Of a stretch of DNA of 64,000 nucleotides, positions 15,431-38,937 are shown in pieces. Each line of letters begins with the position of its first letter. Position 1 is the stretch's first letter. The notes under the pieces were generated by a model. That model made no database searches. It was not told where the DNA came from and saw nothing but the letters and a program-made list of their open reading frames with translations. The translations under genes were made by a program, and so were the position numbers. Origin of the DNA: Ureibacillus manganicus DSM 26584 (GTDB lineage Bacteria; Bacillota; Bacilli; Bacillales_A; Planococcaceae). Where the stretch lies: NCBI RefSeq assembly GCF_000772945.1, contig NZ_JPVN01000008.1:1-64000 (forward strand), written 5' to 3'.

Positions 15431-15655
15431 GGCTATTATATTTACTTTTTAAGATAATGCTCACTTGGTAATAAACTCTCAAACGTTTCGTATAGGAATA
15501 ATTTGTGGATAGTAGCTAGGTAATTGGTAGTATATAATCAAATTAGTAGAGGTAAAAAATAATTTTAAGAATATTATGAGATATCCTTTTATTTATAATA
15601 ACTCGGCAGTTAATATCTACTAAACATATACTATTGATAATAGGAAGTGGTTTAT

Positions 15656-21900: not shown

Positions 21901-23300
21901 ATGACACACATAATGCAGCCCAGGTGGCGGTTAACACAGAACAACGAATATTAGACCAATTGCAAGCACATTTTGTAGAAAGGTTTAAAGAACTGTGGGA
22001 ATTCGAAGGGGATCTGGATGTTGCTTTGGTACAGTTAAAACAGCAAAAGCAAACACTTCAAAAAGAAGCCCGCTTTATTAAAGACCGAGAAAAACAATTA
22101 ATCGAACAACAGGAACTATGCAAAAGTGTTGAGAAACTATTTGACCAATATTCGAGGGTTCATAGATTATTAGATCCAATGTTGATCCCTCTACCGTTAA
22201 CAGAAACAGAGCAAAGTGACTATTTGTATAATAAACTCGCACTCACAAACAAACTAATGAACCAGTTGGAACAAGCACAACAACAATACAATAAAGCGCT
22301 AAATGTTTTGGCAGATGCCAAAGATCAGTTTATTGGATTTGCTGAAAAAAATGTGATAGATCCTACACTTCGTAAAACAACGATTGATGGAGTAAAAATG
22401 AAACAAACATTTGCTGAAATATTAGAACATGACCAACACATGAGTGAACGGATTGAAAATGTCATACAATTGGCTGAAAACACGATGCGTGATCATGATA
22501 AAGAGTTACAGCAATTTATTACGTATATTCACATGCATATAAGAAAATTACGTGATGATTTACATGAGCTACAGAAAAAAACAAAGGTAAAAGTAGAAAA
22601 CGAGACAAAATATATTTACAAAATTGATGTACCAGACTGGGACGATGAAATCGCAAAAGAAAGAATTCAGGAGTATATTGATTGGATATTAAGTAAACTC
22701 GAAACTGTACATTATATAGATGAGACAGGAAAAGAGGATAGTGCAAAGGTTCAAAGGTTTTTACACGATTCCTTCAAAACAGTTCCTATTTTGCGAGTTG
22801 TAATGGGTAATCAATCAATAAAAGTAAAATGTCGTAAAGTGAAAAGTGCAACACACATTTCCAATACTTTTTATACGTGGGAAGAGTCGAATCGATGGTC
22901 AGGCGGAGAAAAGTGGAGTAAAAATATGGCTTTATTTTTAGGTTTGTTAAACTTCATAGCTGAAAAAAGCCAAAAGCTTGCAAAGAGTATGAAACGAAAT
23001 CGAACAGTAATATTAGACAATCCTTTTGGTAAAGCATCAAGTGATCACGTATTAAGCCCAGTCTTTTTCATCGCAGACCAACTAGGATTCCAACTGATTA
23101 CGTTAACTGCCCATGCAGAAGGAAAGTTCTTAAGCGATTATTTCCCAATTGTTTATAGTTGTCGTTTGAAATTCTTAGAAGGACAATCAAAACAAGTTTT
23201 AACAAAAGAGAAGATACTGCAAAAGGCATACTTACGTGACCATGCACCAGAAAGTCTGGAACGTTTAGGTGAAAGGCAGCAATTGGTGTTGTTTGAATGA
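18888..23300 (+). CDS. jetC: Wadjet defence ATPase JetC (SMC-like)
   Basis: A 1470-residue SMC-like ATPase, the motor of the Wadjet system. Walker A is near residue 37-45 (L-E-N-G-G-G-K-T). Two long coiled-coil arms fill most of the middle. The ABC signature S-G-G-E-K-W is near residue 1338, and Walker B with the catalytic region (V-I-L-D-N-P-F-G) is near 1375. The complex extrudes DNA loops and presents small circular DNA to JetD for cutting (established for Wadjet). ATG 18888 follows GGAACAGGAGG; ATG 18861 is inside jetB and lacks a site. No frameshift is visible, so the system looks intact. Gene order D-A-B-C differs from the A-B-C-D order of the best-studied type. Confidence 0.92.
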   Translation: MPAISKIRLTNVVYENGQKRYHDEVFLFDGLNGALVLENGGGKTVFIQTVVQAVIPHATVADRDIKDTLYLEESPAHIAIEWIINENPRRYIVTAVTLHKKQNGIDSLRYVYEYGENDAQSITEIPFVQKTAQGIRPSDRGEMADYYAYMEKSNSLNAKTFSKSIKSFTNYIENHYQIIHSEWENIIKINGGEGDVEKFFDKCSKTDDLVNRLLIPSIENAMDGFKEHGFAETFENRRAEFKKYKALKETIEQSKQLNQELKIYVDYFRKVDEKEQTYNEVRQHAKGYMHLLAEEMNEITGQLTSLEEQWQRYNQDMEDWERKSASLDIIKQRRKWKEYADKEQLLHAQLLELQDRIEKNRQLYFSLMYAQHRETSNLEKAQLTLVEQQLAEIEKTKDVADLQSQLNVLSGNIQYAFSVQKQQLDEQIYNLSYEQQLVGEKKTLLEKQQDTNDAEIEKELQQRTKSQTALDYTHNQMKDIKSRLVARDEESIEQLLEDWVLESEKLDLENVNLSGRLKKIKELQNEYNQQVLEIEKDHSAEELTKARIEQQLEHITKQEKVLLAQMATLRGNWSHIQSIYEREQSFVEQITSQIERLEKEKEVKLIQERRTKRFIDDYEQQESFFADPLIERKITDWAQNFYVTSGIEFIQQHESELKGNNYPFWASTLITNEKDKNALIDKVKSIQHELTLPIYILSLDEARQVGNDFLPQNAVIVPTGWTDYQQQSVFLEYKREIQEIAIQRENERKGTEKDLRSWQQVYHSLKEFLEKYPFSLFKETEEQLFTINQRIENYKYEKRKIASELEKLKMEYEAKQSTFATNTSKYQDLVNNRIPQANQYIQLSRNIPILDNEVKQCESKIQLLKEVKNNILEELQKLIGQMDEYNQRIIQLQNQKKYQIEENALYKQTESVPPTENSENLEVLKHHFKTIEDQIKQIQTSRGELLERLKNCLEKIEAAKVAMNEQLEEWPNLDTKYAFPIDGLQQISSLRKIYLTLIREQKELNDTHNAAQVAVNTEQRILDQLQAHFVERFKELWEFEGDLDVALVQLKQQKQTLQKEARFIKDREKQLIEQQELCKSVEKLFDQYSRVHRLLDPMLIPLPLTETEQSDYLYNKLALTNKLMNQLEQAQQQYNKALNVLADAKDQFIGFAEKNVIDPTLRKTTIDGVKMKQTFAEILEHDQHMSERIENVIQLAENTMRDHDKELQQFITYIHMHIRKLRDDLHELQKKTKVKVENETKYIYKIDVPDWDDEIAKERIQEYIDWILSKLETVHYIDETGKEDSAKVQRFLHDSFKTVPILRVVMGNQSIKVKCRKVKSATHISNTFYTWEESNRWSGGEKWSKNMALFLGLLNFIAEKSQKLAKSMKRNRTVILDNPFGKASSDHVLSPVFFIADQLGFQLITLTAHAEGKFLSDYFPIVYSCRLKFLEGQSKQVLTKEKILQKAYLRDHAPESLERLGERQQLVLFE

Positions 23301-24745: not shown

Positions 24746-27127
24746 TTAATTCTCAAGTTTCCTTGCTTTCCGTTCAAAATATCGATGAAGTCGATAATCG
24801 CAAATTTCAGTCACCCAATGAAATAAAATCGATTCCATTTCAGTAGGGACCTCAATTTCGAAGGCAAACTCCTTATTACGGAATGCAACAAGCCCTTTGC
24901 TGCTGCCCGACCACTTCGTCATCGGCATTCGCTCGATAAGTGAAGTAACTTTTTTCAAATCATCATCAACTGGATCAATGTGCCTTCTTGCTTTTTCAGA
25001 TAGGAACTCTTTGAAGAAGGGGACAACTTCCTCAGCTGTAATGGCACGTTTCCATTCCGATTTACCTCTCTCAAGCATCGCTTTCAAAACAACCATCTTA
25101 TAGCTTTTGGACATAGCTGTCTTTTCAATTTCATTCAACAAATCCATAAATTGATTAAAAACCAAACTTTCCTCCGAAGTGAGTTCCTCAGCTTCCGCAA
25201 GCATCCCTACATAAGAGCCAAATTCACGAGATAGGTTCAACTCCAATACATTACTATTCAAGTGCATCTCCAAATAAGTCGGTCTGCGTCCCAACTCCAT
25301 CTTCAACTCAAAATAAGCATCAATGATTTGTTGACGATAATTTCTATTTTTCTTCGTTAATTCTTCTAATAAATTAATTACTTCCAAATCGAAATGCAGC
25401 ACACAATCCGTCATTGGTATCGTTTCAACTTCAGTTAACTTCAAACGTTCCGTTGGTTTTAGATCTGGTTTGAAAATCCGCAATTTGCGATCAGCATTCC
25501 GGTAATTCCCGATACAGTCGATAATGACACAGTGAGATTTTCCTTCGGCAATCCGCAAGCCACGACCAATTTGTTGTGTGAAAACTGAAATCGACTCAGT
25601 AGGGCGGATGAATAATAACGTATCTACAGCTGGGATATCCACCCCTTCATTAAAAAGATCGACCGTAAAAATAATCTCAAGATCGCCATTAGTAAAACGT
25701 TCGTGAATCGATTTTCGTTCATGTTTCGCATTCTGACCAGTTAAAACCTCAGCTTCAATTCCCTGGGATTTAAAGTTTTTACATAAATAAATTGCCTGCT
25801 TAACAGAAGAACAAAATGCAATGGTTTTTGTTTGCTTATGATTTTGCCACTCACGAAAAACTTTCTTAATAACGTCATCACGGAGCTGCTCGTTCAATAA
25901 TTCTTCCTCATCATAATGCATACCGAACCAACGAATCTGAGAGTAATCAATTTCGTCCCTTATCCCGTAATAGTGGAAGGGGCTTAACCATTTCCGTGCA
26001 ATCGCATCGAGGAAATGAATCTGTATGGCCACATTACCATCACAAAGACTATATACATCTTGGTTATCCAGTCGGTCAGGAGTTGCAGTAATCCCAAGTA
26101 AAAACTGAGGATCAAAATAATCAATCACTCGATTATAGGTTTTCGCAACTGCATGATGAAACTCATCAATGACAATTAAATCAAAGGCATCCTTTGAAAA
26201 CTTGTCCAAATGAAACTTTTGAGAAATAGTATAAACCGATGCAAAAATCAGGTCACTCTCTGTATCCTTTTCATTTGCATTAAAATAGCCAGTAGATCGA
26301 GTAGGATGTACATTTTGAAAAGCACTCTTAGCTTGTTGCAAAATCTCATCCCTGTGAGCAACGAATAAAATACGTTTAAACTTTTGTGCAAAAAATGCAG
26401 CTAAATAGGTTTTCCCAAGTCCAGTCGCAAGAACAACAAGTGCCTTATCGTAACCTTGCTCCAATGTATCCTCTAATGCCGATAGTGCAAGCTTTTGAGC
26501 AGGGCGCGGCTGTATAATACCGTATTGCGCTGGTTCATCCATAACAATAGAAGGGGTAGCCCCGGCACCATACATTAATTCAGTAGATTCTGCTTCATTC
26601 CACATACTAGATAAAGGCGTAACTTTATTCGCCTCCAAATACTTTGTCTCATATAGTCTCAGGGACTCATCATTAACAGGAATTGTACTTTCACTATAGA
26701 AAACCTTATGAAATGCATCGATAGACTGTTCGAACGTCTCCATATCAATAGTATGAAGATTCCACTCAATTCCGCTCGTTAACGCCGACTTCGATAAGTT
26801 AGAAGACCCCACAATCACATGTTGCGATTGATTCCCCCTAAACAAATAAGCTTTTGGATGAAAAGACCTTCCATTCGACTGAAACATTCGAATCTCCGAA
26901 TTCGGCAACTCTTTAATCAGCAATCGAAGCGCTTCTGGCTGCGTAATACATAAATAATCCCCAACCAAAAGCTGAATCTCACAACCCCTTGCATGTGCCT
27001 TTCGAAGAGTTGGCAGCATCAATTCAACCCCAGATTTCATGGCAAATGCAGTAATCCAGCAAATGTGGATTGCATCATCTGATAGAGTGACTAATTTTTG
27101 TATTAAGTTGGATGTGATTAGTTTCAT
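24746..27127 (-). CDS. PLD-nuclease/SF2 helicase fusion
   Basis: A 793-residue protein. The N-terminal phospholipase-D-like domain has one H-x-K motif (His90, Lys92) with S-S-N at 108-110. The SF2 helicase has Walker A A-T-G-L-G-K-T at 234-240, D-E-F-H-H at 321-325, and motif VI Q-Q-I-G-R-G-L-R. The C-terminal region of about 220 residues is uncharacterised. Fusions of this kind are common in defence islands and act as predicted restriction-like effectors. A second, longer relative lies at 36055. ATG 27127 follows AGGAAGCC and is preferred to a start at 27238 far upstream. It is divergent from the NERD gene at 27257. Confidence 0.85.
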   Translation of the reverse strand: MKLITSNLIQKLVTLSDDAIHICWITAFAMKSGVELMLPTLRKAHARGCEIQLLVGDYLCITQPEALRLLIKELPNSEIRMFQSNGRSFHPKAYLFRGNQSQHVIVGSSNLSKSALTSGIEWNLHTIDMETFEQSIDAFHKVFYSESTIPVNDESLRLYETKYLEANKVTPLSSMWNEAESTELMYGAGATPSIVMDEPAQYGIIQPRPAQKLALSALEDTLEQGYDKALVVLATGLGKTYLAAFFAQKFKRILFVAHRDEILQQAKSAFQNVHPTRSTGYFNANEKDTESDLIFASVYTISQKFHLDKFSKDAFDLIVIDEFHHAVAKTYNRVIDYFDPQFLLGITATPDRLDNQDVYSLCDGNVAIQIHFLDAIARKWLSPFHYYGIRDEIDYSQIRWFGMHYDEEELLNEQLRDDVIKKVFREWQNHKQTKTIAFCSSVKQAIYLCKNFKSQGIEAEVLTGQNAKHERKSIHERFTNGDLEIIFTVDLFNEGVDIPAVDTLLFIRPTESISVFTQQIGRGLRIAEGKSHCVIIDCIGNYRNADRKLRIFKPDLKPTERLKLTEVETIPMTDCVLHFDLEVINLLEELTKKNRNYRQQIIDAYFELKMELGRRPTYLEMHLNSNVLELNLSREFGSYVGMLAEAEELTSEESLVFNQFMDLLNEIEKTAMSKSYKMVVLKAMLERGKSEWKRAITAEEVVPFFKEFLSEKARRHIDPVDDDLKKVTSLIERMPMTKWSGSSKGLVAFRNKEFAFEIEVPTEMESILFHWVTEICDYRLHRYFERKARKLEN

Positions 27128-27256
27128 AGTGGCTTCCTCACTGGAATAAAAAATTATAAACATAAAACAAGATAGTTTCTCTTTCTTTAATAATATATAA
27201 TTGGAATATAAATACCAAATATTAAATTCACAAATCATAGAAAGGAATGTAGCAAA

Positions 27257-28033
27257 GTGGAACTATCCTTATTAATTCTAATTGTTATTTTTGTCGCAAT
27301 GGCAGTACTAAAGGCAAAATACCCAGCCATTAAAGGTGCAGTAGGTGAACGCTTTGTAAATAAAAAACTAAGTGAACTCGGTACAAGCTACAGAGTGTTT
27401 CATGATCTCTATGTCCCGAACGATAAAGGTGGTACAACACAAGTCGATCATATTGTTACATCCCCGTATGGAATTTTCGTCATTGAAACCAAACATTATG
27501 ACGGATGGATACTTGGTCAAGAAAATCAAAAATACTGGACCCAAGTCATCTATAAAAGAAAAGAGAAGTTATACAATCCCATCTGGCAAAACTATGGCCA
27601 CATCCAAGCTATAAAAAAATATATAGGCAAAGAATACTTTGAACCAATCCACTCCATCATCGCATTTTCATCACAATCTACTTTTAAATTCAAAGAAACC
27701 TTTAAATCTGCAAAAGTCATCCAATTCCCACAACTATTAAAAGTCATCAAAGAATGGAATGAAATCAATATAAGCGAACTTGAGTTGCAAGAACTAAATC
27801 GAGCACTTGAGAAATTGATTATTGTTGATAGGAAAGTGAAGAGGCAACTTCAAAAACAACATGTCCAAACGATAAAAACGAATCTGAAAAATCAAAAAGT
27901 GAAAGAAACTGAAAGCGTGAAGCAAAATTTATGTCCTAAATGTTGGGGAGAGTTGTCTATTAAAAAGGGGAAGTATGGTTCTTTTTATGGGTGTGGTAAT
28001 TACCCGAAGTGTAGGTATACGAGGAAAATATAA
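27257..28033 (+). CDS. NERD nuclease with zinc ribbon
   Basis: A 258-residue protein. Residues 1-17 are a hydrophobic anchor. A NERD (nuclease-related) domain follows, with V-G-E-R-F near 30, Q-V-D-H-I-V and F-V-I-E-T-K-H-Y giving the Asp...Glu-x-Lys catalytic set. A basic linker leads to a C-terminal topoisomerase-type zinc ribbon (C-P-K-C ... Y-G-C-G-N-Y-P-K-C, four Cys). The ribbon suggests single-stranded DNA or DNA-end binding near the membrane. GTG 27257 is used, with AGGAATG upstream. It points the same way as the Mrr-like gene 140 bases on, and together they may form a nuclease pair. Confidence 0.85.
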   Translation: MELSLLILIVIFVAMAVLKAKYPAIKGAVGERFVNKKLSELGTSYRVFHDLYVPNDKGGTTQVDHIVTSPYGIFVIETKHYDGWILGQENQKYWTQVIYKRKEKLYNPIWQNYGHIQAIKKYIGKEYFEPIHSIIAFSSQSTFKFKETFKSAKVIQFPQLLKVIKEWNEINISELELQELNRALEKLIIVDRKVKRQLQKQHVQTIKTNLKNQKVKETESVKQNLCPKCWGELSIKKGKYGSFYGCGNYPKCRYTRKI

Positions 28034-28176: not shown

Positions 28177-29832
28177 ATGTACGAAGTAGAGATTCGGCAT
28201 GATGGGCTAAACAAATACAGAGTTATAAAAGGATCAGATTTATACGTAGTGAATCAAAAAGCAGAAATGCAAGAGAGAGCTTGGGAAGAAATGTGGGAAC
28301 GAAAACAAGAGCAAGATGCAAAGAAACAAGAAAGAGAAAGAGCTGCCCTAAAGAAAGAAGAAAAGAAGTCTTTAGCAGAACAATTGACAAAAGAAGCTGT
28401 TGAACAAATTGAAACAATTGAAAATATTTTAAAGCATACTTTAGATATAGATGACAAAATTGATTGGGATTCACTCAAAGATAAATCTAAATTTACTAAA
28501 CCAAAACCAAAGAAAGTTGAGCCACTAAAAATTCCAATTGAGCCTAACAAAAGTGATATTAAATATCAACCTAAGCTTGGGTTAATTGACAAGTTAATAT
28601 CTTCGAAAAAAGAGCAGAAAATTGAAGCATCAAATAAATTATATCAACTGGATTATGAACAATGGGAAAACGAAAAATTAAAAATAGAAAATTCAAATGA
28701 AGAAAACAATAATAAATACGAGGAAAAATTGAAGAAATGGAAAGATGCGGAGAAAAAATTCCTAAAGGAACAAAAAGAAAAAAATGAAGCTATCGAAACG
28801 CAAAAAGAGAATTATTTAAGAGGTGTTCCGTCCTCAATTATTGAGTATTGTGATATGGTTTTATCGAATTCCAATTACCCAGAAAGTTTTCCAAAGGAAT
28901 ATGATTTAGACTATAACGAGCTTAATAAAACATTAATTGTTGATTATTTATTGCCAGCTCTCGGACAAGTGCCAAGTTTGAAAGAAGTAAAGTATGTACA
29001 AACAAAAGATGAATTTAAAGAAATTCATCTTTCAGATTCAGCATTTAATAAAATGTTTGATGACCTGCTTTATCAAATTACGTTAAGAACAATTCATGAA
29101 TTATATGAGGCAGATGATATTAATTCTATTGATTCTGTTGTATTCAACGGATGGGTAAAATCAATTGATAAGGGTACTGGAAAAGAAATAACTGCATGTA
29201 TTTTATCAATTCAAACTGTGAAGTCAGAATTTGAAGAAATAAATTTAGCATTGGTAGATCCAAAAGTATGTTTTAAAAATCTAAAGGGAGTAGGAAGTAG
29301 CAAGCTACATAGTCTTGCACCGATAGCACCGATAATTAAAATTAATAAGGAAGATGAGCGATTTGTATCCTCATATGACGTAGCGGAAACATTAGATGAA
29401 TCAACAAATCTAGCAGCAATGGACTGGCAAGATTTCGAACACTTAATAAGAGAATTGTTTGAAAAGGAATTTAACCAATCAGGAGGAGAAGTTAAAATCA
29501 CACAAGCAAGTAAGGATGGGGGAGTTGATGCAGTAGCGTTTGATCCCGATCCAATAAGAGGTGGGAAAATAGTAATTCAAGCGAAACGATATACGAATGT
29601 CGTAGGCGTATCAGCAGTCCGTGATTTATATGGAACAGTAATGAATGAAGGCGCTACAAAAGGCATTTTAGTATCAACTGCAGACTACGGACCAGATGCA
29701 TATAATTTTGCGAAAGATAAACCTTTAACCCTATTGAACGGAAATAATCTTCTTCACTTATTACAAAAACATGGTCATAAAGCGAAAATAGATCTTAAAG
29801 AGGCTAAAAAAATACTATCGGATAATCAGTAA
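28177..29832 (+). CDS. Mrr-like restriction endonuclease
   Basis: A 551-residue protein with a long charged N-terminal half (coiled-coil-like, rich in Lys and Glu, residues 20-220), a middle domain of unknown type, and a C-terminal Mrr-type catalytic domain from about residue 413: M-D-W-Q-D-F-E-H-L-I, then D-G-G-V-D-A, then I-V-I-Q-A-K-R-Y. This is the PD-(D/E)XK site in its Q-x-K form. Mrr proteins are type IV enzymes that cut modified DNA. The long N-terminal part likely senses the target. ATG 28177 lies 12 bases after AAAGGGG. A terminator at 29981-30011 ends the unit. Confidence 0.85.
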   Translation: MYEVEIRHDGLNKYRVIKGSDLYVVNQKAEMQERAWEEMWERKQEQDAKKQERERAALKKEEKKSLAEQLTKEAVEQIETIENILKHTLDIDDKIDWDSLKDKSKFTKPKPKKVEPLKIPIEPNKSDIKYQPKLGLIDKLISSKKEQKIEASNKLYQLDYEQWENEKLKIENSNEENNNKYEEKLKKWKDAEKKFLKEQKEKNEAIETQKENYLRGVPSSIIEYCDMVLSNSNYPESFPKEYDLDYNELNKTLIVDYLLPALGQVPSLKEVKYVQTKDEFKEIHLSDSAFNKMFDDLLYQITLRTIHELYEADDINSIDSVVFNGWVKSIDKGTGKEITACILSIQTVKSEFEEINLALVDPKVCFKNLKGVGSSKLHSLAPIAPIIKINKEDERFVSSYDVAETLDESTNLAAMDWQDFEHLIRELFEKEFNQSGGEVKITQASKDGGVDAVAFDPDPIRGGKIVIQAKRYTNVVGVSAVRDLYGTVMNEGATKGILVSTADYGPDAYNFAKDKPLTLLNGNNLLHLLQKHGHKAKIDLKEAKKILSDNQ

Positions 29833-30173: not shown

Positions 30174-32108
30174 ATGCAATCATCATATTGGAATTTTCCG
30201 GCGGCGGCTGGTGGGACGATTAATTCTATCAACAATGCGGGGATTGAGACGTTTAAAGGGAATGAATTGGATTCGTTGACGCGAGAGATTTGTCAGAACT
30301 CGCTGGATGCGATAAAAGATGAAACGAAGCCGGTTGTGGTGGAGTTCAAAAGTTTCAAACTACAACGTAACCAATTTCCACAACGCGCGGAGTTATTAGA
30401 GGCATTAAACAAATGCGAAACGACTTGGAAAGGCAAGAATCCAAAATCGGAGCAGTTTATTGATCAAGCAAAATACATATTAAATGAAAATGAAATACCA
30501 TTCCTACGAATTAGCGACTTCAACACTAAAGGATTAGAAGGTGCGCAATCTGGGGAGCTTGGTACGCCTTGGAGTTCATTGGTAAGAGAAGCGGGTTCCT
30601 CAAACAAAGGGGATAGTTCAGGTGGGAGCTTTGGGATTGGGAAGTCTGCACCGTTTGCGAACTCGAAGCTGCGTATTTTATTCTACTCATCACAAGACCA
30701 AACAAACTACCAATCTCATATTGGTGTAGCCAATATTATGTCGTTTGAAAAGCAGCCTGGCCATATTACACTAGGAACGGGTTATTTCACTAACAATCCA
30801 AACTCAACGGCAATTCCTGGGCTAATCAACCTAGATCCACAATTCAATCGTGCCGAAACAGGAACAGATATTTTCGTATCGGCTTTTGAACCAAAAGATA
30901 ATAACTGGGTAGAAGCTGTACGTAATTCAGTAATTTTCAACTTCTTCATCACTATTTGGCAAAACAAACTTGTCGTAAAAGTGGAAGATGAGATTATCTC
31001 ACATGAAAATATCGGGTCGTTCATTGCGCAGCTTGATGATGGTAATGAAGATTATCGTCATGTAAAAAATTACTTTAGACTTCTAACTTCTGAGGACAGC
31101 ATCCAAATTCCATATCCAGCAAAATCTTATAAAAAGATTGGTAACTTCGAAGATGGCGAGGCAACACTTTACATAATGAAAGGTGAAGACCTAAATCGAC
31201 GTGTTCTTATGACACGTAAAGCTGGTATGCGTTTATTTGAACAAAATCGCATTAGTGGAAGTATTTCATTCACTGGGATTCTAATTATCACTGGTAAGCA
31301 CATGAACCAAGTGTTTAAGAAGATGGAAAACCCTGCGCACACTGGTTGGGAACCGAATCGATTTGAGGAAGCTCCGCGTGAGGCTGATACGGCGTTTAAA
31401 GACTTGCGGAAATTTGTTCGCGAAACTGTACAGCAACAATTCCAGGCTGAAACAACTGACACAATGGATGCCTTTGGTTTAAGCGACTTCCTACCAGACA
31501 CAACGACAGTAGAAGGTGAAGGGGACGATAAAAAAGAATCTCTTACTCTCAAAATCAAATCTATCACCCAAAAGAAAAAAGAAAAGCCGAAAAAGAAACT
31601 GAAGAAAAAACAACGAAACCAAGACTTCGAAGAAACGCTTGAAGAAGCGGGCATTACTTCTGAAGGCGATCAAGCAGGCCATTCCGATGAAGAACGTGAA
31701 CCAGGTCTTGGTGAAGGTGGCGGAACTGGCAATACACACGGAGAACAAGGACCTTCGGATGAGGGTGACGGTGGAGCAAAAGAAGGAAAAGGCGAAAAGG
31801 AAAAAAATAAACCGATTGACATGGAAAAACGTTACGTCTGTCTTCAAAAGAATGAAGGACTATATCGCATCAATATCAAACCCGATAAGAAATTTGAAAA
31901 AGGGAAACTAGAGTTCAAAGTAGCTGGTGAACAAAGCGATTACATCTTACCAATCATTGACGTTCAATCACCTGACATTGAAGTGACAAGTATCGATAAA
32001 AATGTTGTACGATTCATTAATTTAACAGGCAAGAAACCAAAAAACATTCAAGTAAAAGTAGAATACGAGCAATACTGCGTGTTGGAGGTGGACCTATATG
32101 AAATTTAA
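30174..32108 (+). CDS. GHKL-type ATPase, defence candidate
   Basis: A 644-residue protein with an N-terminal GHKL (Hsp90/MutL/MORC-like) ATP-binding domain. The N-box is R-E-I-C-Q-N-S-L-D-A (Glu38, Asn42, Asp45). A D-F-N-T-K-G-L stretch with Asp115 serves as G1. The G2 lid is S-S-G-G-S-F-G-I-G-K-S-A-P-F at about 148-161. Residues about 450-555 are low complexity, first Lys-rich, then Gly/Glu-rich, linking to a small C-terminal beta domain. Family knowledge ties such ATPases to restriction-type systems related to eukaryotic MORC. Here no methyltransferase or Z1-type nuclease lies beside it. GAAAGGGG precedes ATG 30174. It overlaps the next gene by 11 bases. Confidence 0.75.
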   Translation: MQSSYWNFPAAAGGTINSINNAGIETFKGNELDSLTREICQNSLDAIKDETKPVVVEFKSFKLQRNQFPQRAELLEALNKCETTWKGKNPKSEQFIDQAKYILNENEIPFLRISDFNTKGLEGAQSGELGTPWSSLVREAGSSNKGDSSGGSFGIGKSAPFANSKLRILFYSSQDQTNYQSHIGVANIMSFEKQPGHITLGTGYFTNNPNSTAIPGLINLDPQFNRAETGTDIFVSAFEPKDNNWVEAVRNSVIFNFFITIWQNKLVVKVEDEIISHENIGSFIAQLDDGNEDYRHVKNYFRLLTSEDSIQIPYPAKSYKKIGNFEDGEATLYIMKGEDLNRRVLMTRKAGMRLFEQNRISGSISFTGILIITGKHMNQVFKKMENPAHTGWEPNRFEEAPREADTAFKDLRKFVRETVQQQFQAETTDTMDAFGLSDFLPDTTTVEGEGDDKKESLTLKIKSITQKKKEKPKKKLKKKQRNQDFEETLEEAGITSEGDQAGHSDEEREPGLGEGGGTGNTHGEQGPSDEGDGGAKEGKGEKEKNKPIDMEKRYVCLQKNEGLYRINIKPDKKFEKGKLEFKVAGEQSDYILPIIDVQSPDIEVTSIDKNVVRFINLTGKKPKNIQVKVEYEQYCVLEVDLYEI

Positions 32109-32943
32109 TAATTCCTTCCCATACCCAGTGCTGTCAGTAGAGAACGACGATTATATTGGCTCGAAGTTTGAAACAAAGGTTGAAGCACAGAAAACATTTG
32201 GCCAACTTTATATCAATCTAAACTGTAATCTCCAAGACAGTAAGATTACGAACCTTATAAATGAAGGAAAAGCAAAGTATGCTTTGCATGTGGAGTGCCC
32301 ACAAACGAGTTTCCGTAAAATCTATCAATCAAATGAAACAAAAATTGTAGCTGCGATTCCTGAGAACCTTTTGCGCGGAAAAATCGATGTGCATCCATTT
32401 CTCTTGGCTAATGAAACAATTGAAGGATACACGAATCCAAACCTGAATGAATTCTACACTGGTACATCCATCACCTACGAGAAGGGAAATATTCTAGCGC
32501 TTGGTGAAGCAGTAGAAGTCACTCTATTTGAAGATGACCTAGAATCACAAAACCTACCTTCAATTGTGACGATTCGCCGTTCAGAAAGTGCAAAGGAATT
32601 GGTCGTTTCACTCAACTCACCACAAGTTATTATCGAGTTGCCAAAGGCTATTTACGATCAATACGCAATTAATGCAGGTTCACGGTTAAAAGAAACGATT
32701 CTTTCTATGGTCATTTTGCCAAGTTTGATCGAAGTATTCTACACATTAAAAGAAGATAGCGCGGACTACAGCGAATACAAATGGTACCAAGTCCTTGAAC
32801 AAATCTTTAAAAAGAACAACATTCCATTATCGCAAGTCATTGATGGAACAATCCCTGTTTTACGTGCAGCACAAATGGTCCTACAAAATCCATTAGAAAA
32901 AGCATTCAACGAAATCCAAAAACTAAACGAAGGGATGGAATAA
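32098..32943 (+). CDS. Unknown protein, second gene of GHKL operon
   Basis: A 281-residue soluble protein I do not recognise. The N-terminal half looks beta-rich, the C-terminal half (from about residue 180) helical. No catalytic motif is visible. Its start ATG 32098 follows GGAGGTGG inside the end of the GHKL gene, and the next gene starts three bases after its stop, so it is translationally coupled on both sides. Tight coupling with the ATPase argues for a fixed-ratio complex, possibly as substrate recogniser or adaptor (inference). Confidence 0.7.
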   Translation: MKFNNSFPYPVLSVENDDYIGSKFETKVEAQKTFGQLYINLNCNLQDSKITNLINEGKAKYALHVECPQTSFRKIYQSNETKIVAAIPENLLRGKIDVHPFLLANETIEGYTNPNLNEFYTGTSITYEKGNILALGEAVEVTLFEDDLESQNLPSIVTIRRSESAKELVVSLNSPQVIIELPKAIYDQYAINAGSRLKETILSMVILPSLIEVFYTLKEDSADYSEYKWYQVLEQIFKKNNIPLSQVIDGTIPVLRAAQMVLQNPLEKAFNEIQKLNEGME

Positions 32944-32946
32944 TCA

Positions 32947-33705
32947 ATGAAAATCAAATTTTTATCTGAAGACGCCTTACAAGACCTTCGTGTAAACTTC
33001 GAAACCTATAAAGAGCACTACTATAAACGCGATGATGCATGGTTTGACGCTTATTTAAGTGAAGAAGGTAGATTGATAGAGTCGAGGATTGAGTTTGAGA
33101 AACCAGAGCTACATATAGGTGAAGATTACTTAGTAAGTGATTTTGAAAATGTGAAGATTGTCTATGAATCATTGAAAGATCTACCAGTATCTCTAGCAAC
33201 TCAAGAAAAGCTCTGGTCCGGACTTGCTCACGTCTATTTCCGTGACTACATTTATTACCGTATTGCAAAAGACATTGAAAAGAAAAACGATACTCGAATC
33301 AAATCAGCCATGTTTTTTGAGAACGGTGCTAAACGTTCGTTGTTTGTTCATGCTTTAGCAAGATTATGGTGGGTAGGGTACATGACATATGACGAGAATA
33401 ACCAAGAAGATCCTTACTGGCTGACAGAGTTTTTCTGTTCAGCAGATTTCTCTGCTAGATGTGTGGTGTTCTTCTCGAGTAACTTCACTTCTAATTGTGC
33501 GATTACTAAGGGGATATTACGGGCTCTGATTGCACTTCGTGAAGATGGTGTGGATATTAAGCGCGCTCATTTCGTTGAGTCAACAAAGTTCCTCAATATT
33601 TCTGGTGGTGCGATGGTACTTGATCTTTTAGAAGATGATGAAGTGAAAGAGATGGTGGAGAAGAGGTTGCTGAGGGTGTTTAGAGAACAAGTAGTATTTA
33701 ATTAA
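32947..33705 (+). CDS. Unknown protein, third gene of GHKL operon
   Basis: A 252-residue protein that resembles, from memory and with low certainty, the DUF6339 family. Landmarks are aromatic stretches such as A-R-L-W-W-V-G-Y-M-T-Y-D-E and Y-F-R-D-Y-I-Y-Y-R. No known nuclease motif is seen, although the conserved Trp/Tyr and Arg residues in the centre could form an active or binding site. It begins three bases after the preceding stop, and a strong terminator at 33770-33803 closes the operon, so the GHKL system is a self-contained three-gene unit. Confidence 0.65.
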   Translation: MKIKFLSEDALQDLRVNFETYKEHYYKRDDAWFDAYLSEEGRLIESRIEFEKPELHIGEDYLVSDFENVKIVYESLKDLPVSLATQEKLWSGLAHVYFRDYIYYRIAKDIEKKNDTRIKSAMFFENGAKRSLFVHALARLWWVGYMTYDENNQEDPYWLTEFFCSADFSARCVVFFSSNFTSNCAITKGILRALIALREDGVDIKRAHFVESTKFLNISGGAMVLDLLEDDEVKEMVEKRLLRVFREQVVFN

Positions 33706-33769
33706 CAATATAAAGGGATATAAATCTAATAGAGAAGCATGTAGGAGTTTTAGAGATAGCCTAATGAAA

Positions 33770-33803
33770 GAACCTTGAAAAGTTACTTTTCAAGGTTCTT
33801 TTA
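33770..33803 (+). terminator. Terminator of the GHKL operon
   Basis: GAACCTTGAAAAG pairs perfectly with CTTTTCAAGGTTC around TTA, followed by TTTTA. Confidence 0.85.
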
Positions 33804-33872
33804 TGTTAATAATAATTCCAAAAATGTAAATTATGTGGGAGAATTAGGTGTGGAGAATCTAAGGAGGTTAGT

Positions 33873-35984
33873 ATGAGTAGAAGATATCGTATTATTCTAC
33901 TAACTTGTACATTTGTATTGTTACAAGTAGTTGGTTTAATTATTGAAGGAAATTTTATTAATTTATTTTCTAGTTTTTGGTATACTTCAGGGTTTGTTTT
34001 ACTAATATTAATGTCTCTAGTTGATCAACCATTTTTCTCTAAAGACTCTAATATTTTTATGAATGCTATTACTGCTATTATGGCACTTTTACTAGTACCC
34101 ATTGAAAATCACAACTTTGTTTATTATTTTTTTATTGTTTATACATTTTATCTAGTAATATCTAGTTATATTTTAATGATTATGAGGAGTAAAGAATTAA
34201 AGGAAGAAAATAAATTTATTCAATTTATTGCACGGTTTAATAGAATTATAGGAAAGCCCGACGCGATATTTTCAGCTTTCTTCCTTTGGGGAGCTGCAAT
34301 ACAATACACCACAAGTTCTGGAAAATTTAATGCCTTACTATTATTTTGGGTAATTTTTATGTTGTTGAATCTTCCAGAGCTATCAAAAGTAATTGAAAAG
34401 TTATTTGAAAAAACAAATATAAAGAGGCTAGGTATTGGGAAAATCTTTGGTGTTCAATCTAAAAATGTATTTTTAGTTAAAGTTGTTGGTAATTATGAAA
34501 ACTTTGAACTATTTTCATATGTTGAAATGAAGTACTCAGTAGATAATAAAATTTATAGAGGCTTTATTTGTGAGATTATGCTCTTAGATAATGAACAATG
34601 GCTAAAAGTAATTGCAAATGAAGATATAAACAAACATTTCCATAATAGAAACATTATTGATTCTTATACTCAGGATACGGTGTATAAGATTGATAGTCCA
34701 CAGTTTGATCATTTATTACATAAATTTGTAGGATTAGTTACGGAAGGAACAGTAATAAGTAAATTAAGATTCATTTACAATTCTATTATAGAAATTGAAG
34801 AAGGTAGTTTGTTGGAAGTAGGTATAAATGGTAAAAAGATTATTTATCAAATAGTACAGGGAAAAGTTGAAATTGAACAGTTAGCAAATAGGAATCAATC
34901 TGGTTATGTGTTAGGTGAAGCAATTCAATTGGGAATGTGGAATAATCAAAAAAGTCAATTTGACAAGTATGGATGGATTCCAGAAATAAACACCCCTGTT
35001 TATATTTCTAGTCCAATAGATGAAGTAATATTAGATAAAGATGAATTGATAGTTGGATACTTACCAGATTCAAATTATCCCGTAATAATAAATAAGACAC
35101 TTGCTATTACACATCACACAGCTATTATTGGTGTAACTGGCACTGGAAAATCAGTATTTACTAGAAATTTAATAAGAGAATTATTGAATGATGACGTTAA
35201 AGTTATATGTATAGATTTCACAGGAGAGTATAAAAATAAATTTACTGATTTAAATCCTGTAAATATAATAAATCAAAATGAAGTGGAAACTATTTATGAA
35301 TATATTGATAAGATAGAAGTTGAAGAGGCTAAGTTTGCTAATCAAAGAAATAATGATGCTCTCAAAGAATGGAAATCTCAAATGCATCAAATAATGAAGC
35401 AATCTATTGATGCATTTTTACGTGATGATACTAATAAAATTACAATCATTGAATTGCCAGAGGTATATAATACTTCTGGTGTAATGTACTATACAATGGC
35501 ATTTATACGTACTCTTTTTTCTATTGCAAAAAATAATAGTTACAATAAAAAAATAAGCCTAGTACTAGAAGAGGCTCATACCATTATTCCTGAATGGAAT
35601 TTTGCTGGTTCATCTGATAAAAATACGCAAGCTGTAATAAATAGTATAGCTCAAATTGCATTACAGGGTAGAAAATATAATATCGGTCTTCTTGTAATTG
35701 CTCAAAGAACAGCAAATGTATCTAAAACTATACTTACACAATGCAATTCGATAATATCATTTCAAGAATTTGATAAAACTAGTTTAGATTATCTAGCAAA
35801 TTATTTTGGAAATGAAATTGTTGAATCTGTAAATAAGTTAAAATTTAGACAGGCAATAGGCGCTGGGAAAGCATTTAAGTCAAATGTTCCAATAATATTT
35901 GAAGTTCCAGAAATTAATGAAGATATTTATTTAAATGTAGAAAAAACAGTTGATGATTTTGAATTGATTGGATCAATTAGATAG
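33873..35984 (+). CDS. Membrane-anchored HerA-like ATPase
   Basis: A 703-residue protein. About five hydrophobic segments fall in residues 8-170 (around 8-24, 33-50, 62-80, 85-106 and 150-168). A beta-rich middle region follows that may match the HAS-barrel of HerA proteins. The FtsK/HerA-type motor has Walker A G-V-T-G-T-G-K-S near residue 420, Walker B L-V-L-E-E-A-H near 563, and then the I-A-Q-R sensor-like segment. HerA motors pump DNA and in defence systems pair with nucleases such as NurA, SIR2 or DUF4297. A transmembrane domain on a HerA motor is unusual and no partner gene is fused or cotranscribed. AAGGAGG precedes ATG 33873. Confidence 0.75.
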   Translation: MSRRYRIILLTCTFVLLQVVGLIIEGNFINLFSSFWYTSGFVLLILMSLVDQPFFSKDSNIFMNAITAIMALLLVPIENHNFVYYFFIVYTFYLVISSYILMIMRSKELKEENKFIQFIARFNRIIGKPDAIFSAFFLWGAAIQYTTSSGKFNALLLFWVIFMLLNLPELSKVIEKLFEKTNIKRLGIGKIFGVQSKNVFLVKVVGNYENFELFSYVEMKYSVDNKIYRGFICEIMLLDNEQWLKVIANEDINKHFHNRNIIDSYTQDTVYKIDSPQFDHLLHKFVGLVTEGTVISKLRFIYNSIIEIEEGSLLEVGINGKKIIYQIVQGKVEIEQLANRNQSGYVLGEAIQLGMWNNQKSQFDKYGWIPEINTPVYISSPIDEVILDKDELIVGYLPDSNYPVIINKTLAITHHTAIIGVTGTGKSVFTRNLIRELLNDDVKVICIDFTGEYKNKFTDLNPVNIINQNEVETIYEYIDKIEVEEAKFANQRNNDALKEWKSQMHQIMKQSIDAFLRDDTNKITIIELPEVYNTSGVMYYTMAFIRTLFSIAKNNSYNKKISLVLEEAHTIIPEWNFAGSSDKNTQAVINSIAQIALQGRKYNIGLLVIAQRTANVSKTILTQCNSIISFQEFDKTSLDYLANYFGNEIVESVNKLKFRQAIGAGKAFKSNVPIIFEVPEINEDIYLNVEKTVDDFELIGSIR

Positions 35985-36010: not shown

Positions 36011-36055
36011 AAAAGGGACTGTTCTGGATCCATTCCATTAACAGTCCCTTTTTTT
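36011..36055. terminator. Bidirectional terminator between convergent genes
   Basis: AAAAGGGACTGTT (36011-36023) pairs with AACAGTCCCTTTTTT (36040 on). It ends the HerA gene on the plus strand and abuts the stop of the minus-strand helicase. Confidence 0.85.
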
Positions 36056-38937
36056 CATTCCTCAACCAAATAATGATAAACATCATACTGTACAGGTTGA
36101 TCTAAAACCATATTCATAGTAACAACCTTATGTTCACCATCTTCGTCCACCAATTTTTCATTTTTTGCTGTTTGGCTAGCAACTTTAACTGGGCCAAGAT
36201 AGTAGAAATCTTTACCTTCACCGTTATGTTTCTTAACAAATAAATGTACTGTAATACCTTTTTCAGCAGAATGAATGATTGGGGAGATATCTTTAGCATC
36301 TATTGTGCGTTTTTTTGTTGAGCACCATTGGAATAAGTCATTTGATAAAAACTCATCTAAATATTTAGCAGTAGTATCATCATTTTTGTGATAATTTACA
36401 AAGATAGGACAAACATTATCTTTAACTCTTCCCCCGTTAAGCGTACCTTCTTCGTTCTTAGCGTAATTAAGTAGTCTACAAGCATCTTTTCTGGAGTACT
36501 TTTCATATAGTGTCATAGCTTTTGTTTTATCATATTTTGCATTTTTGATGTACGCACATTTTATAGTATCCTCGATATATCCTCTGAAATTAGAGTCCCG
36601 AAGACTTTCTTGGATTTCCTCATTGAATTGATAATTTCCATTAACTATTTTAACAATTGGTTTCAATCCATACTTTTTAATATCAGTTTGGACGAAGAAT
36701 TGTAATGAAAGGATTTTTTCGACTGATGTAATTGTATCCTCATCTATATAAGTACCGAAATCTTGAAGGTTTTGAATGTAATCCTCTTTATTAATAGAAT
36801 CATTATTTAATAACGATTCTATTAATATTATTTCATGAATTCTCTTCCCATTTAAAAACTCTTTGGAAACCATTGTTATTACTGATTGTTCGTAATCAGT
36901 AAGTGATGGAATATCCTCATTCATTTTTAATAGAAACTTGTAGTAGTTATCCGCGTATCCAATAATCACTTCTGGATCTAGTGAGTTTTGAGTCATGAAA
37001 TCATGTAATGTAGGGATTCTACCTAAACGATTTTTGACTTCTGTATAAGCATCTTTTAGAGTCTTTAATGTTGTTAAATTAGTATTATTAATTGCATCAA
37101 AGATTCGTTTCTTTGCAATTTCTTCAAAGTTAATAGTAGAAATACCACTAATGTAATCTGTATTTACTGTTCTACGGCGCACGTTATCTTTATTCATTGA
37201 TTGATCACCTGATAATGCAATTGGGATCAAATAGTTATTTTTATAGTTTCCGATAAAATCGATGATCGTTACATAATCTTTTGAATCGTGTTTACGTAAG
37301 CCACGTCCAAGTTGTTGAATGAAAATAATGCTAGATTGTGTTTGACGAAGCATGACAATTTGGTTTAAGAAGGGGATATCAATTCCTTCATTAAATATAT
37401 CCACAGTTAAAATGTATTGAAGTTCTCCGGTCTCTAGTTGACGGATTGCTTCTTCACGTTCTTCTTGTGAATTATCACCTGTCAAAGCAGTTGTTTTTAA
37501 TCCTTCATTATTCAAAGCAGTTGAAAGATTTCGTGCTTCATCTTTAGAACTACAAAACATTAAACCTTTAACTCTATCACCAGAATGACCATAGTAGTTT
37601 ATTTTTTCAATTATATGATGGACCCGTTCATGTGAAACGAGATTTCTTAAATCAGTCGCATCATCAACTAATCGACCGTCTTTCTCATAATCTAGAACTC
37701 CAAAGTAATGGAAAGGGCAGAGCATGTCATCTTCTAGTGCTGCTTGAAGACGGATTTCATAGGCAATATTGTAATCAAATAATTCGTAAATATTAAAGCT
37801 GTCTGTACGCTCTGGTGTTGCAGTCATCCCAAGTAGGAACTTTGGTGTGAAGTAGTTAATTACTTTTAAGTAAGAATCTGCACCAGCTTTATGAACTTCA
37901 TCTATTAAAATATAATCAAACTGATCTTTTGCAAATTGCTGAAGATAGTTATCTTTTGAAATAGTTTGGATTGTTGCAAACAAGTATTTTGCATTAAGGT
38001 CCTTTGAATTTCCTGAAAGGATACCAAAATCATCTTCATGCCCACCAAGGATTCTTCTGTAGTCCTGCATTGCTTTTTTCAGAATTTGTTCGCGGTGAAC
38101 GATAAACAGCATTTTTTTCGGTGCGAAGTTGCGAACATCGAATGCAGATAAATAGGTTTTCCCAGTGCCAGTCGCAGAAATAATCAAACCTTTTTCAGCA
38201 CCAGTAGCACGAAGTTCTTTCAATTGTTCTAAAGCGACAGACTGCATTTTATTTGGCTTAATAGATAAACTTTCCGCTAGGGAATTGGTTAAATACTTTG
38301 TATTAAGCTCAAGTGCATTTGAAGAAACAGTGTTCACAAACGGTTGTAATTCATGAACTTGCTTGTAATCAGCAATCCATTCCTCTGTTAGGACAATTCC
38401 GTCATTCCAAGCTGTTTCAAATTGATTATTAAAATGTTGGATGATCTCGCCATTTTCTAATGATGTTAAAAATACATTCCACTCATAATTTGCTTTAAGT
38501 GCACTATCTGTTAAATTCGAGCTACCTACAATAAGGGAATAATAGTCTTGGTGTTCAAAGATATAACCCTTAGCATGGAAACCCTTTTCACCAGTTAATC
38601 TTACTTCAACGTTATCTAACTTCAATAATTCTTTAAACATTTTAGGTTGGTTAAAGTTTAAAAAGGTTGAAGTAAGAATGCGTCCTTTGATGCCTTTTTG
38701 TTTTAAATCATAAAGCATTGTTTTTAATGTAGCTAATCCACCTTCAGTAATGAAGGCAACAGAAAAGTGAAACGTCTTACAAGTTTTTAATTCTTGGAGT
38801 AATGTCGATAAGACAGATTCATGGTTCTTATTTGTTAGTAATTTTGGTTTAAATGTTGCAGAAACTGGTTTGTTTTGATCAATAAATCCTTTATGTAAGG
38901 AATTCTCAATTTTCTGGATCAGTTGCTGTTGATTCAT
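36055..38937 (-). CDS. PLD-helicase with DUF3427 domain
   Basis: A 960-residue protein: a PLD-type nuclease domain (H-A-K at 121-123, S-S-N at 139-141), an SF2 helicase (A-T-G-T-G-K-T at 255-261, D-E-V-H at 346-349, and R-G-L-R-K in motif VI), and the long C-terminal DUF3427 domain from about residue 500 to the end. This architecture is widespread in bacteria and is usually paired with a NUDIX hydrolase, as here: the NUDIX gene at 38961 ends 23 bases upstream of this start. It is a predicted defence or DNA-processing enzyme. It is a clear relative of the shorter protein at 24746, but the C-terminal domains differ. Confidence 0.9.
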   Translation of the reverse strand: MNQQQLIQKIENSLHKGFIDQNKPVSATFKPKLLTNKNHESVLSTLLQELKTCKTFHFSVAFITEGGLATLKTMLYDLKQKGIKGRILTSTFLNFNQPKMFKELLKLDNVEVRLTGEKGFHAKGYIFEHQDYYSLIVGSSNLTDSALKANYEWNVFLTSLENGEIIQHFNNQFETAWNDGIVLTEEWIADYKQVHELQPFVNTVSSNALELNTKYLTNSLAESLSIKPNKMQSVALEQLKELRATGAEKGLIISATGTGKTYLSAFDVRNFAPKKMLFIVHREQILKKAMQDYRRILGGHEDDFGILSGNSKDLNAKYLFATIQTISKDNYLQQFAKDQFDYILIDEVHKAGADSYLKVINYFTPKFLLGMTATPERTDSFNIYELFDYNIAYEIRLQAALEDDMLCPFHYFGVLDYEKDGRLVDDATDLRNLVSHERVHHIIEKINYYGHSGDRVKGLMFCSSKDEARNLSTALNNEGLKTTALTGDNSQEEREEAIRQLETGELQYILTVDIFNEGIDIPFLNQIVMLRQTQSSIIFIQQLGRGLRKHDSKDYVTIIDFIGNYKNNYLIPIALSGDQSMNKDNVRRRTVNTDYISGISTINFEEIAKKRIFDAINNTNLTTLKTLKDAYTEVKNRLGRIPTLHDFMTQNSLDPEVIIGYADNYYKFLLKMNEDIPSLTDYEQSVITMVSKEFLNGKRIHEIILIESLLNNDSINKEDYIQNLQDFGTYIDEDTITSVEKILSLQFFVQTDIKKYGLKPIVKIVNGNYQFNEEIQESLRDSNFRGYIEDTIKCAYIKNAKYDKTKAMTLYEKYSRKDACRLLNYAKNEEGTLNGGRVKDNVCPIFVNYHKNDDTTAKYLDEFLSNDLFQWCSTKKRTIDAKDISPIIHSAEKGITVHLFVKKHNGEGKDFYYLGPVKVASQTAKNEKLVDEDGEHKVVTMNMVLDQPVQYDVYHYLVEE

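What the first reader, a model, noticed from the sequence alone, without database searches (positions are those of the whole stretch)
30174..33705. Self-contained three-gene GHKL ATPase system
A GHKL/MORC-like ATPase with a Lys-rich then acidic linker is coupled by an 11-base overlap and a 3-base gap to two unknown proteins, and closed by its own terminator. Described MORC-type restriction systems come with methyltransferase, Z1 or helicase genes; here none is in the operon. This is the best candidate in the window for an undescribed defence system.
Basis: partly seen in the sequence, partly recalled or inferred. Interest (0 to 1): 0.8.

Follow-up and report, generated by a model that had tools for sequence, protein, structure and literature searches.

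The report
Three-gene restriction-linked GHKL ATPase system
Three genes that travel together encode what is probably an ATP-driven protein machine, related to bacterial DNA-restriction systems, that helps bacteria recognise and stop foreign DNA; we found no published test of it.

Summary
In detail: three intact genes A (644 aa), B (281 aa) and C (252 aa), 11-nt overlap, 3-nt gap, own terminator-like hairpin. It is not undescribed: PADLOC lists it as a candidate, PDC-M33, and A fits the published description of the restriction-linked paraMORC2 GHKL family (GHKL boxes and ExxxH invariant in 74 of 74 aligned relatives). New here: (1) A-B-C is a fixed module: C was found in 75 of 79 loci (the other four contigs end there), and in 398 Bacillota genomes C occurs in exactly the 8 with strong A. 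(2) Relatives are restriction-linked: a C5 methyltransferase in 42 of 79 loci (27 within 500 nt), HsdM-type ones in others; yet the window's genome gave no C5 methyltransferase. (3) C has a confident all-helical model with no clear fold match. (4) In two relatives C carries a ~130-aa domain shared with the PLD-helicase 2.9 kb upstream in the window. Best reading: an ATP-gated DNA-clamp core that licenses restriction with exchangeable methyltransferases and motor-nucleases. The mechanism is inferred: A has no structural model, GHKL rests on motifs, and no phage test was possible.

The parts
30174..32108 (+). Gene A (PDC-M33A; paraMORC2-type GHKL ATPase), 644 aa
   Evidence: ORF; PADLOC PDC-M33A E 8.2e-220; GHKL boxes and ExxxH invariant in 74 of 74 aligned relatives
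30285..30311 (+). GHKL box I of A (E38xxxN42xxD45A46)
   Evidence: invariant E38, Q41, N42, D45 in 74 of 74
30516..30536 (+). GHKL box II of A (D115 ... T118 ... G120 L121)
   Evidence: invariant in 74 of 74
30621..30644 (+). GHKL box III of A (GGSFGIGK, 150-157)
   Evidence: G151, G154, G156, K157 invariant in 74 of 74
31215..31217 (+). Invariant R348 of A, candidate basic finger of the S5-like part (inferred)
   Evidence: R348 in 74 of 74; the S5 fold itself was not modelled
31326..31340 (+). ExxxH motif of A (E385-N-P-A-H389), the motif given for paraMORC2
   Evidence: 74 of 74; family description in PMC2292703
31494..31829 (+). Lysine-rich then acidic/glycine-rich linker of A (residues 441-552)
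   Evidence: composition
32098..32943 (+). Gene B (PDC-M33B), 281 aa: N-terminal beta-sandwich, C-terminal helices
   Evidence: ORF; PADLOC E 9.9e-91; model pLDDT 89.5, pTM 0.55
32947..33705 (+). Gene C (PDC-M33C, DUF6339), 252 aa, all-helical model
   Evidence: ORF; PF19866 E 1.6e-54; PADLOC E 8.7e-100; model pLDDT 93.6, pTM 0.90
33764..33804 (+). Terminator-like hairpin with A-tract and T-tract, 19 pairs
   Evidence: fold -22.1 kcal/mol, z -7.6
24746..27238 (-). Possible partner, not part of the operon: PLD-nuclease/SF2 helicase; its C-terminal ~120 aa resemble the domain fused to C in L072 and L073
   Evidence: PF13091, PF04851, PF00271; phmmer 1.1e-5 among 1733 ORFs

Best explanation
The trio is a member of the PDC-M33 / paraMORC2 group and works as the ATP-driven core of a restriction-type defence. 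A binds ATP with its GHKL domain, dimerises and closes as a clamp or loop-holder on DNA (as known for GHKL-S5 proteins such as MutL). B (beta-sandwich plus helices) and C (all-helical) are its dedicated subunits that read the DNA state or couple the clamp to an executioner. Methylation of host DNA, where a methyltransferase is present, marks self; on foreign DNA the complex licenses cleavage by a motor-nuclease encoded nearby or elsewhere (PLD-helicase, Z1 proteins, McrBC-like pair, Vsr/MutH type). In the window's lineage the methyltransferase has dropped out of the locus; the likeliest nuclease partner there is the PLD-helicase at 24746-27238. Shown: operon, motifs, conservation, fixed A-B-C module, restriction-type neighbourhoods, shared domain between C and the PLD-helicase. 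Inferred: clamp action, physical coupling, cleavage in trans, defence.
For: PADLOC PDC-M33A/B/C at E 8e-220, 1e-90, 9e-100. C detected in 75 of 79 loci, missing only where the contig ends within 0-99 nt of the trio. In 398 Bacillota genomes, C in exactly the 8 with strong A, none without A. GHKL residues, R348 and E385/H389 invariant in 74 of 74. C5 methyltransferase in 42 of 79 loci, 27 within 500 nt; on the A tree it is present in 24 of 24 scoreable rows outside the large 45-row clade and in 10 of 38 inside it; 9 label changes against a minimum of 15 in 200 shuffles. HsdS-HsdM directly upstream of the trio in a Ligilactobacillus plasmid; N6 methyltransferase within 3.4 kb in L018, L030, L031. 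A distant A' with a C-like neighbour sits between Z1 and a C5 methyltransferase in L112. Fusion of C with the domain that ends the PLD-helicase; 11 of 12 close helicase orthologues in 29 trio genomes lie in the trio locus. Purifying selection.
Against: No nuclease was recognised in A, B or C. A was not modelled, and profile comparison with MutL and HATPase_c_3 neighbours failed. 9 of 50 fully flanked loci have none of the scored partners. The window's genome has no C5 methyltransferase. The PLD-helicase is common without the trio: 82 of 398 Bacilli genomes have it, and 3 of 80 fetched helicase regions hold A, one of them apparently the same genome as L030. Defence islands collect such genes anyway, and no island-matched control was run.
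Confidence: 0.5

Rival explanations
1. Self-sufficient defence: A-B-C senses and stops phage without any partner, with the effector hidden in C or B (new fold or new active site).
For: The operon has its own hairpin and no co-transcribed partner; 9 of 50 fully flanked loci show no scored partner; neighbours vary while A-B-C stays; C has conserved polar/aromatic residues (W90, R105, R139, W141, W142, D149, N217, D226) and no clear fold match.
Against: Strong restriction-gene linkage in relatives; nothing nuclease-like recognised in B or C; fusion of C to the helicase-type domain points to coupling.
Confidence: 0.25
2. MutL-like matchmaker for repair rather than defence: the trio helps Vsr/MutH-type enzymes repair mismatches or damage at methylated sites, so it keeps company with C5 methyltransferases.
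For: Vsr in 15 of 79 and MutH/Sau3AI-type in 13 of 79 loci; the GHKL/C5-methyltransferase/Vsr grouping was compared with MutL repair by Iyer et al..
Against: Most loci lack Vsr and MutH; the window's genome keeps the trio without any C5 methyltransferase match; sporadic presence within the genus (11 of 25 genomes) and on plasmids (24 records) fits defence better.
Confidence: 0.1
3. Co-resident of defence islands with an unrelated role; neighbours say little.
For: The window is a defence island (Wadjet type III, Mrr, NERD, two PLD-helicases); islands pull unrelated genes together.
Against: Same-strand closeness to methyltransferases in many loci from distant lineages (27 of 79 within 500 nt; tree) and the C-domain fusion.
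Confidence: 0.1

Closest known systems
PDC-M33 (PADLOC-DB 2.0.0 phage-defence candidate)
   Same: All three proteins match its A, B and C profiles over nearly full length.
   Different: A catalogue entry only; two searches found no paper in the held library that names or tests it.
paraMORC2 family (Iyer, Abhiman, Aravind 2008, PMC2292703; parts 1-3 of 4 read)
   Same: GHKL boxes, ExxxH motif, Gram-positive distribution, neighbourhoods with SFII helicases, DNA methylases and Vsr.
   Different: The parts read do not describe B and C as obligate partners, nor copies without a methyltransferase; the paper's own sequences could not be compared here.
MzaABCDE (Gao et al. 2020; seen only through PMC9523054 section 11)
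   Same: A distant trio-like A'-(B')-C' in L112 sits with MzaC-like Z1 and MzaE-like AIPR proteins.
   Different: None of the 17 window proteins scanned against PADLOC matched an Mza profile in the rows shown; the window trio lacks Z1, AIPR and sigma factor.
VcSduA, a Shedu with N-terminal GHKL ATPase (PMC12137116, passages)
   Same: GHKL ATPase in phage defence; its ATPase mutant abolished protection.
   Different: VcSduA carries its own PD-(D/E)xK domain (DUF4263); A does not match it.
HEF_HK / Response_reg_2 pairs beside C5 methyltransferases (PMC8011034, passages)
   Same: paraMORC-like ATPase with partner next to a C5 methyltransferase.
   Different: Different partner domains; no trio.
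CglI / NgoAVII (PMC4267653, passages)
   Same: Methyltransferase plus PLD nuclease plus SF2 helicase with ATP-dependent cleavage, the kind of executioner proposed here.
   Different: No GHKL protein among its three genes.

Membership tests
PDC-M33 | A, B and C profiles in one operon | tested here: met
   order A-B-C
paraMORC2 | GHKL ATP-binding motifs at the N-terminus | tested here: met
   by motif: invariant in 74 of 74; profile tests against MutL gave no match
paraMORC2 | ExxxH motif | tested here: met
   E385 and H389 in 74 of 74; also EMADH in the distant A' of L112
paraMORC2 | S5 domain behind the GHKL domain | tested here: inconclusive
paraMORC2 | restriction-type neighbourhood (helicase, methylase, Vsr) | tested here: met
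   in relatives; in the window only helicases and nucleases, no C5 methyltransferase in the genome
paraMORC2 | direct sequence relation to the 2008 members | not testable with these tools
   figure sequences are not held; Geobacillus thermodenitrificans is in their species list and has a close A (L033), which is suggestive only
MORC proper | GhXhhpXXRhl motif in the S5 domain | tested here: not met
   full motif in 0 of 74; first ten positions in 20 of 74, the window row has S at the last position
MzaABCDE | Z1, AIPR and partners in the locus | tested here: not met
   no Mza match among the rows shown for 17 window proteins
Shedu with GHKL domain | DUF4263 nuclease domain | tested here: not met
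   (Pfam, E <= 1)
Classical type I-III restriction-modification | methyltransferase gene in the locus | tested here: not met
   motif search of the 64-kb window for C5 and NPPY-type ORFs found none (the C5 motif was shown to be too strict on other loci); PF00145 0 matches in the genome; N6 methyltransferases lie on other contigs

The most novel reading that the evidence does not exclude
A-B-C is an exchangeable ATP-dependent restriction core: one constant three-protein machine that pairs with methyltransferases of different chemistry (C5, HsdM/HsdS) and hands DNA to different motor-nucleases (PLD-helicase, Z1/AIPR, McrBC-like) through a shared ~130-aa adaptor domain found at the C-terminus of some C proteins, at the C-terminus of the PLD-helicase and at the N-terminus of a McrB-like protein next to another trio. 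In the window's lineage it has become independent of C5 methylation and must tell self from foreign DNA in another way.
Probability: 0.25. Interest if true: 0.75.

Novelty: new variant of a known kind. Interest (0 to 1): 0.5.

Why it matters
Bacterial MORC-like ATPases have been predicted since 2008 to drive restriction by moving or looping DNA, and eukaryotic MORC proteins are thought to descend from them. A compact three-gene member, with partners that never leave it and with versions both with and without a cognate methyltransferase, makes that prediction directly testable: what the ATPase does, what DUF6339 (C) is for, and whether methylation is the self-mark or only one of several.

Tried and rejected
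Sequence matches of A, B and C to solved structures: none for A and B at E <= 1, three meaningless ones for C at E 0.55-0.69. PHROGs: no match below E 0.07. Pfam HATPase in A: none; the weak AIPR_N match (E 0.035 in the window protein, 5 of 74 relatives, best 0.016) and the weak JetA1 match (E 0.0025) were not taken further. hhalign of A with MutL and HATPase_c_3 neighbours: no match.

Fold search of C: Foldseek found nothing at E <= 0.001 in PDB (best 2.9) or in BFVD (best 1.1); VIA-align gave 4pqk_D at Z 7.2, rmsd 2.3, 72 residues aligned (178-252), below the level that the tool calls safe for helical proteins. So C's fold is unassigned, not shown to be new; its first ~160 residues are barely tested. 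B: only common beta-sandwich matches (best Z 7.8, rmsd 3.0, 96 aligned, 1z6j_T), pTM 0.55.

HerA-like ATPase 33873-35984 as a fourth member: rejected, relatives in 0 of 79 loci. NERD and Mrr genes upstream as fixed partners: rejected, 3 and 2 of 79 loci. PLD-helicase as obligate partner: rejected (12 of 29 trio genomes have a close orthologue; 3 of 80 helicase regions have A). A fixed methyltransferase partner: rejected for the window. My first C5 motif search was too strict (22 of 79 loci) and was replaced by a profile (42 of 79). A note in the notebook wrongly calls the L113 hit a PLD-helicase; it is a MrcB_N-AAA protein. Viral contigs: none of 16 pattern matches encodes a relative. Phages: 1 short unannotated record of 50,697.

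Rows dropped: A5 holds 74 rows, chosen from 78 that cover at least 85% of the profile; near-identical rows and the broken A genes of L041, L061 and L081 are not in it. In the tree counts 10 rows without enough flank, and L010 and L012, were not scored; a locus counts as 'with' on any hit but as 'without' only with 3 kb on both sides, which leans towards 'with'. Of 82 genomes with the helicase, 80 regions were fetched (the window's own and the partial one in G125 were left out). One of 11 Ligilactobacillus and one of 6 Lactococcus plasmid records was looked at, and one of 2 Priestia.
Full report
OBSERVATION. The window holds three genes on the + strand: A 30174-32108 (644 aa), B 32098-32943 (281 aa, 11-nt overlap) and C 32947-33705 (252 aa, 3-nt gap). 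Behind C lies a 19-pair hairpin at 33764-33804 with -22.1 kcal/mol and z -7.6, although the simple terminator scan missed it. The lysine-rich and then acidic, glycine-rich linker of A is real. dN/dS against copies in Ureibacillus and Lysinibacillus genomes is 0.036-0.090 in the 13 of 16 gene pairs where it could be computed, with dS often above 1, so all three genes are under selection but the ratios are rough.

WHAT THE PROTEINS ARE. PADLOC-DB assigns A, B and C to PDC-M33A (8.2e-220), PDC-M33B (9.9e-91) and PDC-M33C (8.7e-100), a phage-defence candidate. Pfam gives only DUF6339 for C (1.6e-54). In an alignment of 74 A proteins the residues E38, Q41, N42, D45; D115, T118, G120, L121; G151, G154, G156, K157; R348; E385 and H389 are invariant. 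These are the three GHKL boxes plus an ExxxH motif. Iyer, Abhiman and Aravind 2008 (PMC2292703; [quoted passage not shown] The MORC-specific S5 motif is absent (0 of 74). A search pattern for the three boxes hit 99 of 1049 open frames of at least 200 aa, all of them among the 105 A-family members. Against this, no Pfam HATPase match was found and hhalign found no relation to MutL or to the HATPase_c_3 proteins of neighbouring genes, so GHKL is a motif-based assignment.

STRUCTURES. C gives a confident all-helical model (pLDDT 93.6, pTM 0.90) with no Foldseek match at E <= 0.001 in PDB or BFVD; VIA-align's best is 4pqk_D, Z 7.2, rmsd 2.3 over 72 residues of the C-terminal third, which the tool treats as possibly only a common helical arrangement. 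B has an N-terminal beta-sandwich and a helical C-terminal part (pLDDT 89.5, pTM 0.55). No nuclease was recognised in either.

A FIXED MODULE. A scan of 84,980 species genomes kept 79 loci, the best of 199 that encode a relative. B was detected in 78 and C in 75 of the 79; the four without C have 0, 0, 77 and 99 nt of contig left. A is split in L041, L061 and L081, and B is broken or partial in L081, L083 and (contig end) L059. In 398 Bacillota genomes A is strong (E <= 1e-102) in 8 and weak in one (G200); DUF6339 is in exactly the same 8 and nowhere without A. In the window's genus A is in 11 of 25 genomes. A sister clade whose A is only about 22% identical has the same A-B-third-gene order in all 6 loci looked at, and the third protein relates weakly to C (hhalign probability 67%, E 5e-5, 182 columns).

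RESTRICTION LINKS. In the 79 loci (up to 10 kb of flank) a C5 methyltransferase is present in 42, within 3 kb in 37 and within 500 nt in 27; Vsr in 15, a MutH/Sau3AI-like protein in 13, PLD-helicases in 17, Z1 in 9, a second GHKL protein in 7, McrC in 6, and a small protein right upstream of A in 23. With 5 kb on both sides, 41 of 50 loci have at least one of nine scored partner families and 9 have none. Twelve trio-bearing relatives have 0-5 matching places for PF00145 per roughly 3-4-Mb genome, so 42 of 79 is far above random placement; islands were not controlled for. On the A tree the C5 methyltransferase is within 3 kb in 24 of 24 scoreable rows outside a 45-row clade and in 10 of 38 inside it; 9 changes against 15 or more (mean 20.7) in 200 shuffles. 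The root is a midpoint, so 'ancestral' is an inference. Methyltransferases of another chemistry also sit there: HsdS-HsdM directly before the trio on a Ligilactobacillus plasmid, without an annotated HsdR in the 17.3-kb stretch (whose gene table may be incomplete), and N6 methyltransferases at L018, L030 and L031. On a Priestia plasmid the trio is followed by MutH/Sau3AI and dcm; on a Lactococcus plasmid it lies between an AlwI-type endonuclease and AbiG.

THE WINDOW IS DIFFERENT. Its genome (99.99% complete) gave no C5 methyltransferase match, nor did G020 and G003, while 9 of 12 trio-bearing genomes have one; it has N6 methyltransferases on other contigs. Around the trio lie Mrr- and NERD-type nucleases, two PLD-helicases, a HerA-like ATPase and, further off, Wadjet type III.

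LINK TO MOTOR-NUCLEASES. [quoted passage not shown] weaker matches to helicases in L024, L026 and L032). The second query also hits the N-terminus of a McrB-like protein in L113 (1.3e-6), where the order is Z1 - A - B - C - a short frame - McrB-like - DUF2357/PD-(D/E)XK. Among 29 trio genomes, 12 have a close orthologue of the helicase (48-57% identity, one of them split) and 11 of these lie in the trio locus. In the genus only the window's genome and G007 (74%, with two stops) have the close form, both beside a trio. Against exclusivity, 82 of 398 Bacilli genomes have the helicase and only 3 of 80 fetched helicase regions hold A, one apparently being L030's genome again; 79 of the 80 match the profile of the shared domain, so the domain belongs to the helicase as such. 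L072 and L073 themselves have no such helicase in the flanks held.

DISTANT BRIDGE. The weak hit G200 (L112) has A' (PADLOC PDC-M33A 7.7e-10; own GHKL boxes and EMADH) followed by a 314-aa protein without similarity to B and a 242-aa protein weakly like C (hhalign 61%, E 8e-5), set between a Z1 protein (MzaC 7e-62), an AIPR protein (MzaE 4e-79), Vsr and HNH on one side and a C5 methyltransferase on the other. This ties the trio to the Mza-like group of restriction-linked defence; PMC9523054 section 11 describes related Z1/methyltransferase candidates.

MECHANISM. Best reading (0.5): an ATP-gated GHKL clamp (A) with two dedicated subunits (B, C) that licenses restriction by partner nucleases, with methylation as self-mark where a methyltransferase is present. 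Rivals: self-sufficient defence (0.25), MutL-like repair helper for Vsr/MutH (0.1), island co-resident (0.1).

KNOWN OR NEW. Not undescribed: a catalogued candidate with a 2008 family prediction for A. The held open-licence library has no paper with PDC-M33 or DUF6339, and searches for GHKL defence, Mza/AIPR, paraMORC and PDC-M with PADLOC (listings, with passages read from PMC12137116, PMC8011034, PMC11514479, PMC13092281, PMC9523054 and PMC4267653) showed no test of the trio; subscription papers and supplements were not searched. New here are the fixed module, the exchange or loss of the methyltransferase, the unassigned fold of C and the shared domain with motor-nucleases.

Noticed in passing
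window 15647-23300: Complete Wadjet type III set in the order JetD3, JetA3, JetB3, JetC3 (E 2e-108, 7e-206, 2e-111, 0).
   Followed up: no
window 50601-52256: 551-aa protein with a partial match to PADLOC pAgo (E 2e-21, residues 20-453), possibly a short or degenerate Argonaute relative.
   Followed up: no
window 36055-38937: Second PLD-helicase with DUF3427, a near full-length match to PADLOC mREase_IV (E 7e-296).
   Followed up: partly
window 28177-29832 and 27257-28033: Mrr-type restriction protein (PADLOC mREase_IV 2e-69) and NERD nuclease with topoisomerase zinc ribbon, between the PLD-helicase and the trio.
   Followed up: partly
window 33873-35984: HerA-like ATPase behind the trio's hairpin with a non-matching N-terminal third; no relative in 79 trio loci.
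   Followed up: partly
L046 9666-9980 and 22 other loci: Small protein (about 70-104 aa) mostly directly upstream of A in 23 of 79 loci and on a Priestia plasmid; no Pfam family, only a weak Cas11a-like PADLOC match. The window lacks it.
   Followed up: partly
L051 13499-16453, also L050, L053, L054: About 1000-aa protein right behind C with RNA polymerase alpha-CTD, HHH and sigma-70 region 4 domains.
   Followed up: no
L066, L069, L063, L070, L081, L084 (Paenibacillus): Trio between two C5 methyltransferases and followed by a second GHKL protein and a Z1 protein: two GHKL systems in one cluster.
   Followed up: partly
L113 1599-12568: Z1 helicase - A - B - C - McrB-like AAA - DUF2357/PD-(D/E)XK on one strand.
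   Followed up: partly
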